Source: Solirubrobacterales bacterium
Lineage (GTDB): Bacteria; Actinomycetota; Thermoleophilia; Solirubrobacterales; Solirubrobacteraceae
Reading direction: 5' to 3'
Assembly: GCA_019247075.1 (NCBI GenBank)
Contig: JAFAPR010000200.1
Location: 1 to 32,779, forward strand
DNA length: 32,779 nt
Position 1 is the first letter of the stretch; every line of letters starts with the position of its first letter. The translations under genes were made by a program, and so were the position numbers. Below the pieces are notes generated by a model that had not been told where the DNA came from, did no database searches, and saw nothing but the letters and a program-made list of their open reading frames with translations. Of the stretch, positions 7,259 to 11,992 are shown piece after piece.

Positions 7259-8197
7259 TCATCTGTCGACGCGCGCCGCCACGTCGGCGTCGATGAGCTC
7301 CCGGTACAGCGTCTGAAGGCGCTTCACCGTCGGCCCGCGGCGGCCATCGCCCACCGTGCGGCCGTCAACGGACCGGACGGGCACCACGCCGGCGAACGTG
7401 CCGGTGACGAACGCCTCCCGGGCGGCGTAGACGTCGGTGAGGCTTAGCGTCGTCTCGCGCGCCGCGATGCCGTTGGCACGGCAGATGGCAAGCACCTTGC
7501 CGCGCGTGATCCCGGCGAGGCAGTAGCGCCCGTCGGAGGTCAGGACCTCCGGCTCCTCGTCCGGCCCGACGACAAGGAAGAAATTCGTCGAGTTACACGT
7601 CGCGACGAACCCGTGGGGGTCGAGCATCAGTGCCTCGTCGGCGCCCGCCGTGTAGGCCTGGATGCACGCGATGACGTCGCCCAGCTTGGAGTGTGAATTG
7701 AGCTTTGGGTCGAGCGTGTCGGGCGCGGCGCGACGCACATGGGTAGTGAACAGCGCGATGCCGTCGGTCAGGGTCCTCGGCAGCGGCTCCTTGTGCTCGG
7801 CGATGATCACCACGGTCGCGGGTCCGACCGTCACGCGCGGATCCTGATAGGGCGTGCGCTTGATCCCGCGGGTGGCCATCAGCCGCACATGCACGCCGTC
7901 GGTCATGCCATTGGCTCGCAGCGTCGTGTAGATCGCCTCGGTCAGCTCCCGGCGGCTGCGGCCGAGGTCGAGCAAGATCGCCTTCGCGCCCGCGAATAGG
8001 CGGTCGAGATGGAGGTTCAGAAAGACCGGATGCCCCGCCCGCACACGCAGGCCCTCCCACACGCCGTCGCCGAGGATGAAGCCCGCATCGAAGACCGATA
8101 CGACCGCCAGCTCGCGCGGCACGAGCTCGCCGTTGACCCAGACGAGGACGCGCTCGTTGCGAACGTCGTCCTCGAAGTCGTGCGTGCCATGAGCCAT
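7259..8197 (-). CDS. Class-IV PLP aminotransferase with altered cofactor-binding motif
   Basis: A 312-residue fold-type IV enzyme of the branched-chain/D-amino-acid aminotransferase and aminodeoxychorismate lyase family. WVNGELVP, SVFDAGFILGDGVWEGLR and VRLMATRG are family landmarks. Lys165 in LDPKLNS aligns with the PLP-binding lysine. In most members the next motif is V-T-E-G-x-x-x-N, whose Glu contacts the PLP ring nitrogen. Here it reads VATCNSTNFF, with Thr200 at that position. This points to a distinct subfamily, possibly the one that accompanies sulfotransferase-like proteins such as the neighbour at 5330. It could be a transaminase of unknown specificity. It lies upstream of no same-strand gene closer than the HAF terminator, and downstream of the sigma-factor gene by 75 bp. 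Confidence 0.85.
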   Translation of the reverse strand: MAHGTHDFEDDVRNERVLVWVNGELVPRELAVVSVFDAGFILGDGVWEGLRVRAGHPVFLNLHLDRLFAGAKAILLDLGRSRRELTEAIYTTLRANGMTDGVHVRLMATRGIKRTPYQDPRVTVGPATVVIIAEHKEPLPRTLTDGIALFTTHVRRAAPDTLDPKLNSHSKLGDVIACIQAYTAGADEALMLDPHGFVATCNSTNFFLVVGPDEEPEVLTSDGRYCLAGITRGKVLAICRANGIAARETTLSLTDVYAAREAFVTGTFAGVVPVRSVDGRTVGDGRRGPTVKRLQTLYRELIDADVAARVDR

Positions 8198-8272
8198 AGC
8201 GCGAAGACTATGGCGCTCTCACGGCAGCTGCGGATGCTCGAGGACGCCGGCTGGCCAGCGGAGGGTGGCTGT

Positions 8273-9133
8273 CTAGCGCGAGCGTACGAGGCGCGGCACC
8301 AGCTCGCGGTCGTTGAAGATGTCGATCGTGATCGCCCGGTCGCCGACGACAGTGAAGGCGAGGATCGCGAACGGGGTGTCGCCGTCGAACGCCACCACGC
8401 CGGCGGTGCCGTTGATCAGCGCCGGGCGCACGAAGGGCGCGAACCTGCGCGTGCCCATCGCGGCGCGCGCAACCTTTTCGGCGCCGCGGAGCTCGAACAC
8501 TCCGGCGCGTCCGTGGGAGCGCGCGACGACGTCGGGGTCGAGCACGGCGACCAGAGCATCGAGCTCGCCCTCCCGGGCGGCCGCGAAGTAGGCGTCGACG
8601 ACGGCTCGCTGACGAGCCAGGTCGGGTTCCGGCGGCGGCGCGGCGGCCCTGACGCGGCGCCGCGCGCGGCTGGCAAGCTGCCGGGTCGCCTCGGGCGAGC
8701 GCTCGATCAGCGTGGCGATCTCATTGAAAGGCACGGCGAACATGTCGTGCAGGACGAAGGCGAGGCGCTCTGCCGGGCTCAAGGTGTCGAGGACGACCTG
8801 CAGAGCGACCCCAACGGCGTCGGCGAGCAGGGCCTCGCGTTCGGGATCGCCGTCCGCGTCGGTCGAGATGATCGGCTCGGGGACGAACGCCTCGAGTGGC
8901 TCCTCGGCGTTGTACCGCCTGTCCCGCAGGATGTTCAGGCAGATCCGCGCGACAACCGTGGTCAGCCACCCCTCCAGGTTGTCGATCCCCTCGGCGTTCG
9001 CCCGCTGAAGCCGCAGCCATGCTTCCTGCACGGCGTCCTTGGCCTCGCTCAACGAGCCCACGATCCGGTACGCGACCGTCCGCAACCGCACGCGCTCGCA
9101 ATCGAACCTGTTTGCCAACTCGAGCTGATCCAT
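8273..9133 (-). CDS. ECF sigma factor with C-terminal SnoaL-like domain (ECF41/SigJ-like)
   Basis: A 286-residue protein. Region 2 is at about 8-80 (VAYRIVGSLSEAKDAVQEAWLRL, then LEGWLTTVVARICLNILRDRR). Region 4 is at about 110-165 (LSPAERLAFVLHDMFAVPFNEIA, then ATRQLASRARRRV). A NTF2/SnoaL-like domain runs from about 172 to the end (VVDAYFAAAREGELDALVAVLDPDV). This architecture defines ECF41-type sigma factors, which work without an anti-sigma factor because the C-terminal domain modulates activity. The motifs usual in that domain (DGGGR and NPDKL) appear only as SHGRAG and NDREL, so it may be a related group. It is divergent from a carboxymuconolactone-decarboxylase-family gene, the classic ECF41 target. 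Confidence 0.92.
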   Translation of the reverse strand: MDQLELANRFDCERVRLRTVAYRIVGSLSEAKDAVQEAWLRLQRANAEGIDNLEGWLTTVVARICLNILRDRRYNAEEPLEAFVPEPIISTDADGDPEREALLADAVGVALQVVLDTLSPAERLAFVLHDMFAVPFNEIATLIERSPEATRQLASRARRRVRAAAPPPEPDLARQRAVVDAYFAAAREGELDALVAVLDPDVVARSHGRAGVFELRGAEKVARAAMGTRRFAPFVRPALINGTAGVVAFDGDTPFAILAFTVVGDRAITIDIFNDRELVPRLVRSR

Positions 9134-9159
9134 GTCACACCGCCGCCTGGTTTCGGGTC
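9133..9159 (+). promoter_or_regulatory. ECF41-type promoter for the CMD-family gene
   Basis: TGTCACA at 9133-9139, then exactly 16 bases, then GGTC at 9156-9159. The published ECF41 consensus is TGTCACA-N16-CGTC, so only the first -10 base differs. The -35 begins at the last base of the sigma gene's start codon. The predicted transcript would begin near 9166, leaving a leader of about 43 bases that carries CAGGAGG at 9196-9202 before the ATG at 9209. Confidence 0.8.
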
Positions 9160-9169
9160 ATGCCCGGTA

Positions 9170-9196
9170 GACCCCACAAAACCACCCGATGTGACA
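9170..9196 (-). promoter_or_regulatory. ECF41-type autoregulatory promoter for the sigma-factor gene
   Basis: On the minus strand, TGTCACA (9196-9190) is followed by 16 bases and GGTC (9173-9170). It has the same motif, spacing and -10 as the opposite-strand promoter 10 bp away. It points at the sigma gene, whose ATG is at 9133, and implies positive autoregulation. Confidence 0.78.
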
Positions 9197-9208
9197 GGAG
9201 GTTGTTCG

Positions 9209-9835
9209 ATGGCACGGATCCACGGAGTACAAAGCGATCAGGCCGGCGCCAGGGTCAAGCTCGTGTACTGGTTCATGCGCGCCGGAATGAAGAAGCTGAC
9301 CGGCCGCGAAGCGGCCCACGGCAGTGGGATCGAGCCCATCGAGATCTGGGCCCACCAGCCGAAGATGATGACCGGCATGGGCAAGTTCCAGCAGGCCGTG
9401 AGGAAGGGAAACACCGTGGAGGAGCGGCTCAAGTACCTGGTCGAGCTGAAGGGTGCCCAGGTGATCGGCTGCGAGTTCTGCGTCGACCTCGGCTCGCAGA
9501 TCGCTCGCAACTCCGGCCTCTCCGACGCGGAGCTGTTGGCTTTGCCGCGCTACCGCCAGAGCGAGCTGTTCACGGCGCGCGAAAAGCTGGCGCTCGACTA
9601 CACCGTCGCGGTAATGCGCACCCCGGTGGAGGTCGCCGACGAGCTGTTTGCCCGCATGCGGGAGCAATTCACCGACGAGCAGCTTGTCGAGATCACCGCC
9701 CTGCTTACGGTAGTCAACCTCGACCGCTTCAACGCCGCCTTCGGTGTCGGGTCAGCCGGGTTCTCCGAAGGAATGGTGCGCGTCCCGCCGGACCGCCCCG
9801 CGGACCACCCGTCGCAGCTCGCGAGGATCGCATAG
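9209..9835 (+). CDS. Carboxymuconolactone decarboxylase (CMD/AhpD-like) family protein
   Basis: A 208-residue protein. The ATG at 9209 is chosen for CAGGAGG at 9196-9202 and because the upstream open frame crosses the promoter region and the antisense sigma gene. The CMD core is EERLKYLVELKGAQVIGCEFCVDLGSQIARNSGLSDAEL, with Cys88 and Cys91 in C-x-x-C. The AhpD-type His three residues after the second Cys is absent (Leu-Gly-Ser follow), which is a known variant of CMD proteins with CEFC. These are small alpha-helical oligomers with peroxidase/disulfide-type or unknown activity. It is the predicted regulon member of the adjacent sigma factor. Confidence 0.9.
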   Translation: MARIHGVQSDQAGARVKLVYWFMRAGMKKLTGREAAHGSGIEPIEIWAHQPKMMTGMGKFQQAVRKGNTVEERLKYLVELKGAQVIGCEFCVDLGSQIARNSGLSDAELLALPRYRQSELFTAREKLALDYTVAVMRTPVEVADELFARMREQFTDEQLVEITALLTVVNLDRFNAAFGVGSAGFSEGMVRVPPDRPADHPSQLARIA

Positions 9836-9849
9836 CCCACCAAGGTCCG

Positions 9850-10032
9850 TTACCAGTCGCCGCGACGCAGCGCGCGCCGCACCGATTGGCGTGCGCGGCG
9901 ATTGTGCGCACGACGGGACCCGCCGTGCTCGCCTGCTCCGGAGCGCTGGAAAGCGGCCACGCCGACGGCGGAGCGAACGGAGCGCGCAAGCTTCACGGCG
10001 CTGTTGGAGGCTCTGGACTTCGTGTGGGCCAT
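9850..10032 (-). CDS. Possible small basic protein, unknown
   Basis: A 60-codon frame, MAHTKSRASNSAVKLARSV..., very rich in Arg, Ser and Ala. Third positions are mostly G or C, as in neighbouring genes, and no other frame here is better. There is no clear Shine-Dalgarno before the ATG and I recognise no family. It may be a small nucleic-acid-binding protein or a chance frame. The rest of the 9836-10118 interval shows nothing else. Confidence 0.3.
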   Translation of the reverse strand: MAHTKSRASNSAVKLARSVRSAVGVAAFQRSGAGEHGGSRRAHNRRARQSVRRALRRGDW

Positions 10033-10118
10033 ACGGTCAGGGTAGCCGTTGCGGAGATGACCGCCTCCACGAGGCCATACGCCGAGTGGGCGAACAGCTG
10101 AAGGGAAGCTCAGCCAAT

Positions 10119-10778
10119 CTAGCCACCAAGCCCGCCGAGCACCGCGAACGGGCTGAACGGAGTCGCGTAGGGCGCGTCCCGGGTGATCTCTTGCATGCTT
10201 CCTTCCGCGCTCACCTCGGTGCCGGCCGGCGCTTCATTACGGATGCGCTCGGCGAGGGCCTTGGCGGTGTCTTCATCGTTTGCGCCAGCGACGACGAACC
10301 GCCAACGGTGGGCCATTGGGATGCCCTCCGCGTCCAGTCTGCGGGCGAGCCTCTCTGCGTCGCGATGCGATTCGCACTTGACGCGCACTTCGAACATCGG
10401 GAATCCTTGTGCCGCCGATTCGTCGCGCTCGCTCTCGATCAGCTCGGTGTGTTCCTGCGCGCGTTCCGCGGAAGAGTCGGGCTGGTCGGCATCGGGCGGC
10501 TCCCATCGCTCGGCCAGCGGATGCCAGCGCTCGAGGTCGATCCCACTGCTCCAGCGGTGCTGGTCCTTCAGCGTCTCGATCGCGCGCTGCGCCGCCTCCG
10601 CCTGCGCGCGGCTGTTCGCGTAGCAGAACACGATCTCCCCGTCCCGCGAGACGACCACGCGGCTATGAAAAGAAGTCTCCAGGTCATGCTCGAGGTCGCG
10701 GGCCTGCAGGCCCGCGGCTAGCTCGCGGGCACCCGCCTCATCGTCGAACCGGACCCTCAGACGCCAGTCTTCAGCCAT
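10119..10778 (-). CDS. Hypothetical protein with two ferredoxin-like repeats
   Basis: A 219-residue soluble protein built of two similar halves. Residues about 5-70 read RLRVRFDDEAGARELAAGL, then a strand (RVVVSRDGEIVFCYA) and a helix (AQAEAAQRAIETL). Residues about 128-185 read FEVRVKCESHRDAERLARRL, then RWRFVVAGANDED and TAKALAERIRNEA. Both halves follow beta-alpha-beta-beta-alpha order with a helix full of Ala/Arg, suggesting ACT- or ferredoxin-like modules. An acidic linker (about 95-122) joins them. The C-terminus ends PFSPFAVLGGLGG. No catalytic motif is seen. This resembles conserved hypothetical proteins of Thermoleophilia; function unknown. Confidence 0.75.
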   Translation of the reverse strand: MAEDWRLRVRFDDEAGARELAAGLQARDLEHDLETSFHSRVVVSRDGEIVFCYANSRAQAEAAQRAIETLKDQHRWSSGIDLERWHPLAERWEPPDADQPDSSAERAQEHTELIESERDESAAQGFPMFEVRVKCESHRDAERLARRLDAEGIPMAHRWRFVVAGANDEDTAKALAERIRNEAPAGTEVSAEGSMQEITRDAPYATPFSPFAVLGGLGG

Positions 10779-10864: not shown

Positions 10865-11992
10865 ATGACCCAGCAGACGTGGGCGGATAGGGCGATCGCC
10901 GCCTACGATGCATTGCAGAGGTACTTCTACCTCGGCGATGGCACCGGCCTCTATCGCGAGAGCTACTCCTTCGGTTCTCGAGGGCATTCCGCGAGTGCGT
11001 GGGGCTTCGGGCGAGCCTTGATCGGCACCCTTGCGCTTGCTGGTATCCCGTCGCGCCTTCTTGGCGAGCGGCGTCATCTGGAGTATCAGTCCGCCGTGGA
11101 GGACCGGCTGGGCGCGCTCGCGCACTACCTGGACAGCTCCTCCAGTCCGGCGGGATATGGCGGACGCCCGACCCCGCCGGTTGGCCCTGGGGGCGACAGG
11201 TATTACGACGACAACGCCTGGATCGGGCTCGCGCTTTTGCAGGACTACAAGATGACCGGGAGGTCGCGGTCGCTGCGCGACGCCGGGGCCGTGTATGGCT
11301 TCGTCTATCCCGGCGGTTGGCACACGAACCCCACTGACCCGCATCCGGGCGGGATCTTCTGGCTACAACAGGGCATCGGCAAAGGCTTAGCCAATCACGA
11401 CCGGACCTGCACCTCCAATGCCCCCAACGCCGAGATTGCCTTTCAGCTCACGGAGCTGCTCTCGGACAAGGCGCCGCCTTCCGTGGCCGGTGGTGCCGCC
11501 ATCCAAGATTGGGTTCTAGGCGCTCTGTACGACGAAGGTTCGGGTCTGGTGTACGACAAGTTGATGGGCGACGGCAGAATCGACACCACGCTGCGAACGT
11601 ATAACCAGGGCGCGGTGATCGCCGCAAACGTGATGCGGTACCGAACTACCGGGGAACGCTCGTACGTGTCGCAGGCGGAGGCGGTCGCGAGGGCGGCGTT
11701 GGGCTACTTCTCGGAATCCTTCTATGTCAGCCACCCCTGCGTCTTCAACGCGATCTACTTTCGCGGACTGCTCCAGCTGTACGCGGTGTCTGACAACACG
11801 AGCCTGAAGAGCGCGATCGTGCTCGCAATGCAGACCTACGCCGAGGACGCCTGGAGCAACTACCGCTCGCGCAAGACCCTGTTCAGGTTCTCCGCGTCGG
11901 CGGCCAGCCTTGATCTACTCGACCAAGCCGCCATGGTGCAGATCCTCGCCACGCTGGCCTGGGACCCCGGCGATTACCCGATGCTCGGCTAG
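10865..11992 (+). CDS. Glycoside hydrolase family 76 (alpha-1,6-mannanase-like)
   Basis: A 375-residue (alpha/alpha)6-barrel enzyme. ATG at 10865 gives MTQQTWADRAIAAYDALQRYF, the usual first helix; an in-frame TTG at 10835 is less likely. YYDDNAWIGLALLQ carries the paired Asp residues that are catalytic in GH76. HPGGIFWLQQG, RTCTSNAPNAEIAF and TYNQGAVIAANV are conserved barrel motifs. The end is trimmed compared with secreted mannanases, and no signal peptide is present, so the enzyme looks cytoplasmic, which is unusual for the family. GH76 cleaves alpha-1,6-mannan backbones. No glycan genes adjoin it. It is convergent with the small winged-helix gene. Confidence 0.88.
   Translation: MTQQTWADRAIAAYDALQRYFYLGDGTGLYRESYSFGSRGHSASAWGFGRALIGTLALAGIPSRLLGERRHLEYQSAVEDRLGALAHYLDSSSSPAGYGGRPTPPVGPGGDRYYDDNAWIGLALLQDYKMTGRSRSLRDAGAVYGFVYPGGWHTNPTDPHPGGIFWLQQGIGKGLANHDRTCTSNAPNAEIAFQLTELLSDKAPPSVAGGAAIQDWVLGALYDEGSGLVYDKLMGDGRIDTTLRTYNQGAVIAANVMRYRTTGERSYVSQAEAVARAALGYFSESFYVSHPCVFNAIYFRGLLQLYAVSDNTSLKSAIVLAMQTYAEDAWSNYRSRKTLFRFSASAASLDLLDQAAMVQILATLAWDPGDYPMLG

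What the first reader, a model, noticed from the sequence alone, without database searches (positions are those of the whole stretch)
9133..9196. Mirror-image ECF41-type promoters between a sigma factor and a CMD-family gene
Seen in sequence: TGTCACA-N16-GGTC occurs once on each strand, 10 bp apart, pointing at the two divergent genes, with exactly the same spacer. Established: ECF41 sigma factors carry a SnoaL-like C-terminal domain, neighbour carboxymuconolactone decarboxylase/oxidoreductase/epimerase genes, and recognise TGTCACA-N16-CGTC. Inference: a self-contained autoregulated switch with no anti-sigma factor. The twist is a GGTC rather than CGTC -10 on both sides and missing DGGGR/NPDKL motifs in the regulatory domain, so the sigma factor may belong to a neighbouring group with a shifted -10 preference.
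Basis: partly seen in the sequence, partly recalled or inferred. Interest (0 to 1): 0.72.

Follow-up and report, generated by a model that had tools for sequence, protein, structure and literature searches.

The report
Face-to-face promoters of a self-switching sigma factor
Two copies of the same gene switch point at each other between a regulator gene and an enzyme gene, at a spacing that recurs across several bacterial phyla, so the regulator probably turns on itself and its one target from a shared spot where only one polymerase fits at a time.

Summary
TGTCACA-N16-GGTC occurs once per strand at 9133-9159 (+) and 9170-9196 (-); 0 matches in 100 shuffles; no other TGTCACA-N16-GGTC in the 3.88-Mb, 87% complete draft genome. 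The promoters are not back to back. They face each other, with overlapping footprints and 10 bp between the -10 elements.

This is a divergent SigJ/ECF41-like sigma factor-CMD locus. Divergent loci with both promoters are already published (Wecke 2012). Two things go further:

(1) Face-to-face spacing is nearly fixed. In 80 loci from a capped scan allowing gaps 0-30, the gap was 8 in 58, 9 in 14, 10 in 4, 11 in 1; three Prevotella hits had 30. A protein-first survey gave gap 8-10 in 33 of 34 facing pairs. Back-to-back pairs vary (0-54).

(2) GGTC goes with one sigma residue. Residue 67 is Asp in 64 of 64 relatives with CGTC and Asn/Thr in 40 of 40 with GGTC/TGTC; 22 of 22 later loci agree, one residue corrected by eye.

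Best reading: one autoregulated, mutually exclusive bidirectional promoter, read by an Asn67 branch of ECF41-like sigma factors. Transcription starts are unmapped.

The parts
8273..9133 (-). SigJ/ECF41-like sigma factor, 286 aa (sigma2, sigma4, C-terminal SnoaL/NTF2-like domain)
   Evidence: Pfam Sigma70_r2 and r4_2; NCBIfam SigJ 230.1 bits, curated cut-off 271; Foldseek 5xe7 E 8.5e-16
8315..8620 (-). C-terminal SnoaL/ketosteroid-isomerase-like domain (about residues 172-273)
   Evidence: AlphaFold2 block means of pLDDT 83-96 in this stretch; SnoaL_2 sub-threshold, 19.3 bits against 27
8933..8935 (-). codon of Asn67, the residue that covaries with the first base of the -10 element
9133..9139 (+). 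-35 element TGTCACA of the CMD promoter; its first base overlaps the sigma ATG
9156..9159 (+). -10 element GGTC of the CMD promoter
9160..9169 (.). 10-bp inner gap, where both predicted start sites lie (sigma: A at 9161 on -, 9 nt after its -10; CMD: A at 9169 on +, 10 nt after its -10)
   Evidence: position inferred from the mapped S. meliloti ECF41 start and base conservation in relatives
9170..9173 (-). -10 element GGTC of the sigma promoter
9190..9196 (-). -35 element TGTCACA of the sigma promoter
9197..9201 (+). Shine-Dalgarno-like GGAGG of the CMD gene, abutting the sigma-promoter -35
   Evidence: sequence
9209..9835 (+). carboxymuconolactone decarboxylase-family protein, 208 aa, with CEFC (CxxC)
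   Evidence: Pfam CMD E 5.5e-9; sequence

Best explanation
The 64-bp element is one bidirectional promoter made of two complete ECF41-type promoters that face each other and overlap. The sigma factor encoded on the left reads both, so it transcribes itself and its single target, the CMD gene. The two start points fall a few bases apart in the 10-bp gap and the two holoenzymes would melt almost the same DNA, so only one can occupy the site at a time: sigma and target compete, which caps the positive feedback of a sigma factor with no anti-sigma-like gene among the neighbours examined. Activity is presumably gated by the fused SnoaL-like domain. The first -10 base is read by sigma2 residue 67: Asp goes with C (CGTC), Asn or Thr with the keto bases G or T (GGTC, TGTC); this sigma factor has Asn. 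Shown: motif, geometry, conservation, covariation. Inferred: use by this sigma factor, start sites, mutual exclusion, feedback limit, the hydrogen-bond logic.
For: Pair exact, and the only TGTCACA-N16-GGTC sites in the genome. Same layout in nine of nine closest relatives among the loci (L011-L019: gap 10 in eight, 9 in one). Protein-first survey: 159 sigma loci, 34 with a facing partner at gap 0-60, 33 of them at 8-10. Gap 31-61: 0 of 296 genomes. Residue 67: 64 of 64 and 40 of 40, later loci 22 of 22. In sigmaH the equivalent residue N92 hydrogen-bonds the base pair next to this position (PMC6411747 section 11). Mapped ECF41 start 9 nt after CGTC, so in the majority gap-8 class each +1 G would be the partner of the last C of the opposite -10. 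Opposed polymerases exclude each other at bidirectional promoters in E. coli (PMC12825309).
Against: No start site or expression was measured. 109 of 159 sigma relatives have no exact motif within 400 bp upstream. The back-to-back layout also exists (7 places in 6 of 296 genomes, twice as many genomes as facing pairs in the same set; 6 of 25 later loci), so facing is not obligatory. One later facing pair has gap 24 (L321, both -35s with a changed first base) and one in the survey has gap 20 (L251). Two of 106 sigma factors have mixed -10s, L045 (Asp with one GGTC) and L285 (Thr with one CGTC); L316 (Asp) has a GGTC-type site besides its CGTC pair. The covariation is phylogenetically clumped: 9 changes on the best tree but only 1 independent pair on strongly supported branches, too few for a test. 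In E. coli, the five bidirectional promoters tested were too weak at basal activity to compete. In the window's gap-10 class the +1/-10 sharing of the gap-8 class does not hold.
Confidence: 0.7

Rival explanations
1. Two ordinary ECF41 promoters brought close by compaction of the intergenic region; the spacing is a by-product of short leaders and has no regulatory meaning.
For: In 61 of 78 unique loci the sigma start codon lies less than 11 nt from the target promoter's -35, so space is tight. Divergent layout with both motifs is long known.
Against: In the 17 loci where the start codon is 11-52 nt away the gap is still 8 (16) or 9 (1) (start codons chosen by script). Gaps 0-7 and 12-29 are absent in the 80-locus scan. 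Back-to-back pairs, also compact, have loose gaps.
Confidence: 0.2
2. The inverted repeat TGTCACA...TGTGACA is an operator for a dimeric transcription factor rather than two sigma-factor promoters.
For: TGTSACA is itself nearly palindromic and the pair is an inverted repeat (sequence).
Against: The -10 base covaries with a DNA-facing sigma2 residue. In the 12 family loci with a pair, where spacers of 15-17 were allowed, 12 of 12 have 16 on both sides (the other loci were selected for 16). The same motif is a tested ECF41 promoter in two other bacteria (PMC3426412).
Confidence: 0.04
3. Only the CMD promoter is used in vivo; the sigma-side motif is vestigial or weak.
For: B. licheniformis and R. 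sphaeroides sigma factors appear to act on a single transcript. In G/T pairs the two sides are not equal: G on the sigma side in 14 of 15.
Against: Both motifs are kept in nine of nine closest relatives among the loci; the sigma side is GGTC in eight and TGTC in one.
Confidence: 0.06

Closest known systems
ECF41 sigma factors (Wecke et al. 2012, PMC3426412)
   Same: SigJ-like architecture with C-terminal SnoaL-like domain, CMD neighbour with CxxC, -35 TGTCACA, 16-nt spacer, no anti-sigma gene found, divergent layout with both promoters (55 divergent loci there; motif before sigma in 36, before the target in 41).
   Different: -10 is GGTC, not CGTC; DGGGR/NPDKL-type motifs absent; the face-to-face, near-fixed spacing is not mentioned in the passages and two sections I read of that paper.
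Bidirectional promoters of E. coli and other prokaryotes (Warman et al. 2026, PMC12825309, first of six parts read; PMC10268837, passages)
   Same: Start sites on opposite strands a few bases apart, one polymerase excludes the other, -10 and +1 positions overlap reciprocally.
   Different: Those are housekeeping promoters that share one near-symmetrical -10; here two full -35/-10 sets of an ECF sigma factor face each other with separate -10s.
M. tuberculosis SigJ (PDB 5xe7)
   Same: Best structural match over the full length, 34% identity; Arg at the position of sigmaH N88 in both (PMC6411747 for SigJ; R63 here).
   Different: Its promoter arrangement was not examined here.
ECF sigma-promoter specificity code (Todor et al. 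2020, title and content recalled; a code of this kind is summarised in PMC8103513, passages)
   Same: Residues in sigma2/sigma4 predict -10/-35 bases.
   Different: The original paper is not held, so whether the residue-67 rule is already listed there is unknown.

Membership tests
ECF41 | sigma2 and sigma4 domains | tested here: met
   Sigma70_r2 1.7e-10, r4_2 5.1e-8
ECF41 | large C-terminal SnoaL-like extension | tested here: met
   Model (mean pLDDT 71, pTM 0.50) aligns with SigJ 5xe7 over the whole length; SnoaL_2 below the Pfam cut-off in the window protein (19.3 against 27 bits), listed at E up to 0.01 in 24 of 30 members of the alignment, window included
ECF41 | adjacent carboxymuconolactone decarboxylase/oxidoreductase/epimerase gene | tested here: met
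   CMD 5.5e-9
ECF41 | promoter -35 TGTCACA and spacer 16 +/- 1 | tested here: met
   consensus
ECF41 | -10 consensus CGTC | tested here: not met
   GGTC on both strands; note that a tested ECF41 promoter of B. licheniformis also departs (TGTT)
ECF41 | conserved C-terminal motifs DGGGR and NPDKL (motif names from the finding and recall, not from a paper I saw) | tested here: not met
   0 of 12 close relatives including the window; also missing in most of the other 92 relatives examined
ECF41 | target is the neighbouring gene only | tested here: inconclusive
   no other convincing GGTC/TGTC site in the 87% complete genome; in silico only. A CGTC site stands before an epimerase-like gene (L005), reader unknown
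ECF41 | assignment by the ECF group HMM | not testable with these tools
   library not available; NCBIfam SigJ model 230.1 bits, under its cut-off of 271
Bidirectional promoter (Warman) | start sites on opposite strands 7-25 bp apart | tested here: inconclusive
   predicted 8 bp (9161 and 9169), not mapped; definition from PMC10268837
Bidirectional promoter (Warman) | shared -10 element | tested here: not met
   two separate GGTC elements 10 bp apart

The most novel reading that the evidence does not exclude
A conserved class of ECF bidirectional promoter in which the spacing of two opposed promoters is itself the regulator. In the main class (gap 8) the last base of each -10 doubles as the partner of the other transcript's +1, so sigma and target must share one melted bubble and their output ratio is set by DNA geometry rather than by an anti-sigma factor. 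A one-residue Asp/Asn-Thr switch in sigma2 splits these systems into two promoter languages (CGTC and GGTC/TGTC) that can sit in one genome with little cross-talk.
Probability: 0.4. Interest if true: 0.7.

Novelty: new variant of a known kind. Interest (0 to 1): 0.52.

Why it matters
ECF41-type sigma factors have no known separate anti-sigma brake, and where both promoters are present they should switch on themselves. A fixed face-to-face promoter would supply a brake: each round of sigma synthesis blocks the target and the reverse. The near-constant spacing in loci from seven phyla and the single-residue -10 rule make this testable with a few point changes, and would let -10 bases of this widespread group be predicted from protein sequence alone.

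Tried and rejected
Chance: rejected (0 in 100 shuffles). Further targets in the own genome: TGTCACA-N16-CGTC at three places. L003 and L004 lie inside long open frames; L005 lies about 30 nt before an epimerase-like gene. No GGTC/TGTC target beyond the pair stood out from the control. Missing C-terminal motifs as a sign of another group: not diagnostic. Paralogue insulation: 32 of 90 surveyed genomes hold both Asp and Asn/Thr types (46 of the 90 have two or more surveyed sigma factors) against 26.4 expected; 230 of 5000 shuffles reach it, so weak, and the survey was drawn by similarity to the window protein. Independent-pair test of the residue rule: only one pair on strongly supported branches. 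Sigma70-like promoter scan: none in 8200-10150. The binomial value ignores kinship and is not used.

Full report
WHAT IS THERE. The window (32,779 bases, contig C88 of a 3.88-Mb draft, 87% complete; phylum Actinomycetota is my inference, since several scan loci with 70-80% identical sigma factors are titled Solirubrobacterales or Solirubrobacteraceae, though the most similar one, L046 at 84%, is titled Dormiibacterota and L087 at 75% Acidobacteriaceae) carries a sigma factor gene at 8273-9133 (-) and a CMD-family gene at 9209-9835 (+). Between them TGTCACA-N16-GGTC occurs once on each strand, 9133-9159 (+) and 9170-9196 (-); 0 matches in 100 shuffles. The + strand copy points to CMD and begins at the sigma start codon; the - strand copy points to sigma and abuts the CMD ribosome-binding site. 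The promoters therefore face each other with 10 bp between the -10 elements. In the whole draft genome these are the only TGTCACA-N16-GGTC sites; the wider TGTCACN-N16-[GT]GTC search adds two sites against three in the control.

WHAT THE PROTEIN IS. Pfam finds sigma region 2 and region 4. NCBIfam's SigJ subfamily is the best model, 230.1 bits, under its cut-off of 271. An AlphaFold2 model from an alignment of 30 sequences (window plus 29 of the 80 loci of the scan) has mean pLDDT 71 and pTM 0.50, with block means of 83-96 in the C-terminal domain. Foldseek's best match is M. tuberculosis SigJ over the full length (TM 0.55), then Streptomyces SigG1, then other ECF sigma factors and, for the C-terminal part, ketosteroid-isomerase-like folds. 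So the fused SnoaL-like domain is present. DGGG is absent in all 12 close relatives (60% identity or more, window included) but also in 56 of 64 other CGTC-type and 25 of 28 other GGTC/TGTC-type sigma factors; its absence does not separate this protein. The close relatives have their own conserved forms there ([SAN]H and mostly F-N-D-x-x-L-V).

GEOMETRY, FIRST SURVEY (starting from the DNA). The gap was 8 in 58, 9 in 14, 10 in 4, 11 in 1 and 30 in 3. The three with 30 are Prevotella with no sigma relative beside them. Without them the loci come from Actinomycetota 54, Pseudomonadota 12, Acidobacteriota 5, Chloroflexota 3 and one each of Dormiibacterota, Myxococcota and FCPU426 (by record titles). 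With 29 family loci and three phylum-search loci added (112 given), 95 had a pair and 83 of these had the sigma relative beside it, 78 of them unique. The 12 without are the three Prevotella and nine pairs of gap 8 or 9.

GEOMETRY, SECOND SURVEY (starting from the protein). 160 loci were given (not every match was fetched); 159 unique sigma loci were read 400 bp upstream: no exact motif 109, motif towards sigma only 26, away only 4, facing pair 19, back-to-back 1. Allowing up to 2 mismatches in the partner -35 gives 34 loci with a facing partner at gap 0-60; 33 have gap 8-10 and one has 20. In 296 genomes of the phylum, facing pairs with gap 0-30 occur in 3, the window's own included (gaps 9, 10, 11), gap 31-61 in 0, back-to-back with -35s inside in 6 (7 places, gaps 0, 11, 16, 17, 23, 23, 24); all six back-to-back loci fetched hold a sigma relative. 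In 25 later loci, with the first -35 base relaxed, facing pairs have gap 8 (4), 9 (3) and 24 (1), and back-to-back pairs 9, 10, 10, 12, 21 and 54. So two divergent layouts exist; the facing one is tight, the other loose.

IS IT JUST PACKING? In 61 of 78 unique loci the sigma start codon is less than 11 nt from the -35 of the target promoter, so leaders are short. But in the 17 others (11-52 nt) the gap is still 8 in 16 and 9 in 1. Start codons were chosen by script, so single values can be off.

WHY 8? A mapped ECF41 start in S. meliloti lies 9 nt after CGTC (PMC3616915, passage; sequence in PMC6180224 Table 1, passage). R. sphaeroides and B. licheniformis start at G (PMC3426412, passage). With gap 8 the ninth base is the G opposite the last C of the other -10, and position 8 is T or C in 43 of 43 towards sigma and 42 of 43 towards the target in the Asp class read by the script, a pyrimidine-purine start step. 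Of 8 one-directional promoters without that GAC, 6 have the same step at positions 8/9 (my reading of the printed sequences, several of them alike). In the window's class (gap 10, Asn) the bases are A at position 9 towards sigma (10 of 10) and T-A at 9/10 towards the target (8 of 10 each), so the starts probably lie inside the gap and do not share the -10 bases. The melted regions would still almost coincide.

THE -10 BASE. Among 106 unique sigma factors with a readable promoter, the alignment column of window residue 67 is Asp in 64 of 64 with only CGTC and Asn (36) or Thr (4) in 40 of 40 with only GGTC/TGTC; no other column comes near (0.96 bits, next 0.59). Two have mixed -10s: L045 (Asp; CGTC and GGTC) and L285 (Thr; CGTC and GGTC). 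On a tree built without this column both traits change 9 times, but only 1 independent pair rests on strongly supported branches. Later loci, fetched after the rule was seen: 26 given, one already known, 25 new; 22 had a motif (first -35 base relaxed); Asn with GGTC/TGTC 7 of 7, Asp with CGTC 15 of 15 (L316 corrected by eye and with an extra GGTC-type site). They come from one order of the same phylum, so they are not fully independent. In the survey, one of 159 proteins has a gap at this column. Counting from the conserved Trp, residue 67 equals N92 of sigmaH, which hydrogen-bonds the base pair directly downstream of the one discussed here (PMC6411747 section 11). Asp can only accept from the amino group of C, Asn and Thr can donate to the keto groups of G and T; that chemistry is my inference. 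That ECF residues predict promoter bases is published (summary in PMC8103513, passages); whether this rule is listed I could not see.

GAP AND BASE GO TOGETHER. Among 78 unique pairs: CGTC/CGTC has gap 8 in 48 of 51; GGTC/GGTC has gap 10 in 9 of 11; G/T pairs have gap 9 in 10 of 15; one pair is C/G. In G/T pairs G is on the sigma side in 14 of 15, and in 4 of 4 later ones. I have no explanation for either; kinship contributes.

HOW IT MOST LIKELY WORKS. The sigma factor, released by its fused domain on an unknown signal, reads both promoters. The two polymerases cannot sit there together, so sigma and enzyme share the site. Opposed polymerases exclude each other at bidirectional E. coli promoters, strong activation one way can repress the other way and constraint lowers noise, while basal activity of the five tested was too low to compete (PMC12825309, first of six parts read). 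Applied here this would limit the sigma factor's positive feedback and tie its level to that of its target. This step is inference.

KNOWN OR NEW. Divergent ECF41 loci with both motifs are published: 55 loci, sigma promoter in 36, target promoter in 41 (PMC3426412 Table 4). The passages and two sections that I read there say nothing on overlap, symmetry or spacing of the pair. 18 papers of the library from 2012 on mention ECF41; of these I saw passages of five (PMC3426412, PMC6180224, PMC8999054, PMC3616915, PMC8103513) and the others as listing and start of abstract only. Goutam 2017, Todor 2020 and Wu 2019 are not held and may say more. I file it as a new variant of a known kind, and do not file the protein formally under ECF41 because the -10 consensus and the C-terminal motifs are not met and the group HMM was not available.

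Noticed in passing
L005:1501-1527 (own genome C324): TGTCACA-N16-CGTC about 30 nt before an NAD-dependent epimerase-like gene: a canonical ECF41-type target, yet both close sigma41 relatives of this genome carry Asn67 (GGTC type); an Asp-type reader may be in the missing part of the draft.
   Followed up: partly
L007 (own genome C352): A second sigma41 paralogue, 55% identical, also Asn at the residue-67 position, with no TGTCAC-N15-19-NGT[CT] motif in the 3.8-kb stretch fetched.
   Followed up: partly
L042:272-355, L059:427-510, L093:588-671: Three Prevotella contigs share an 84-bp TGTCACA...TGTGACA pair with inner gap 30 and TGTC on both sides, without a sigma relative detected on the stretch; nature unknown.
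   Followed up: no
L019, about 140-198: A second, back-to-back TGTGACA/TGTCACA pair over 1 kb upstream of a close relative's sigma-CMD promoter pair.
   Followed up: no
one search set; L300, L313, L315, L318: In pairs with one GGTC and one TGTC the G is on the sigma side in 14 of 15 unique loci and 4 of 4 later loci; reason unknown.
   Followed up: partly
window 7259-8197, 10119-10778 and 10868-11992: Neighbours: class IV aminotransferase (-), protein with a weak SPOR-domain match (-), GH76-like glycosidase (+); no anti-sigma-like gene among these three.
   Followed up: partly
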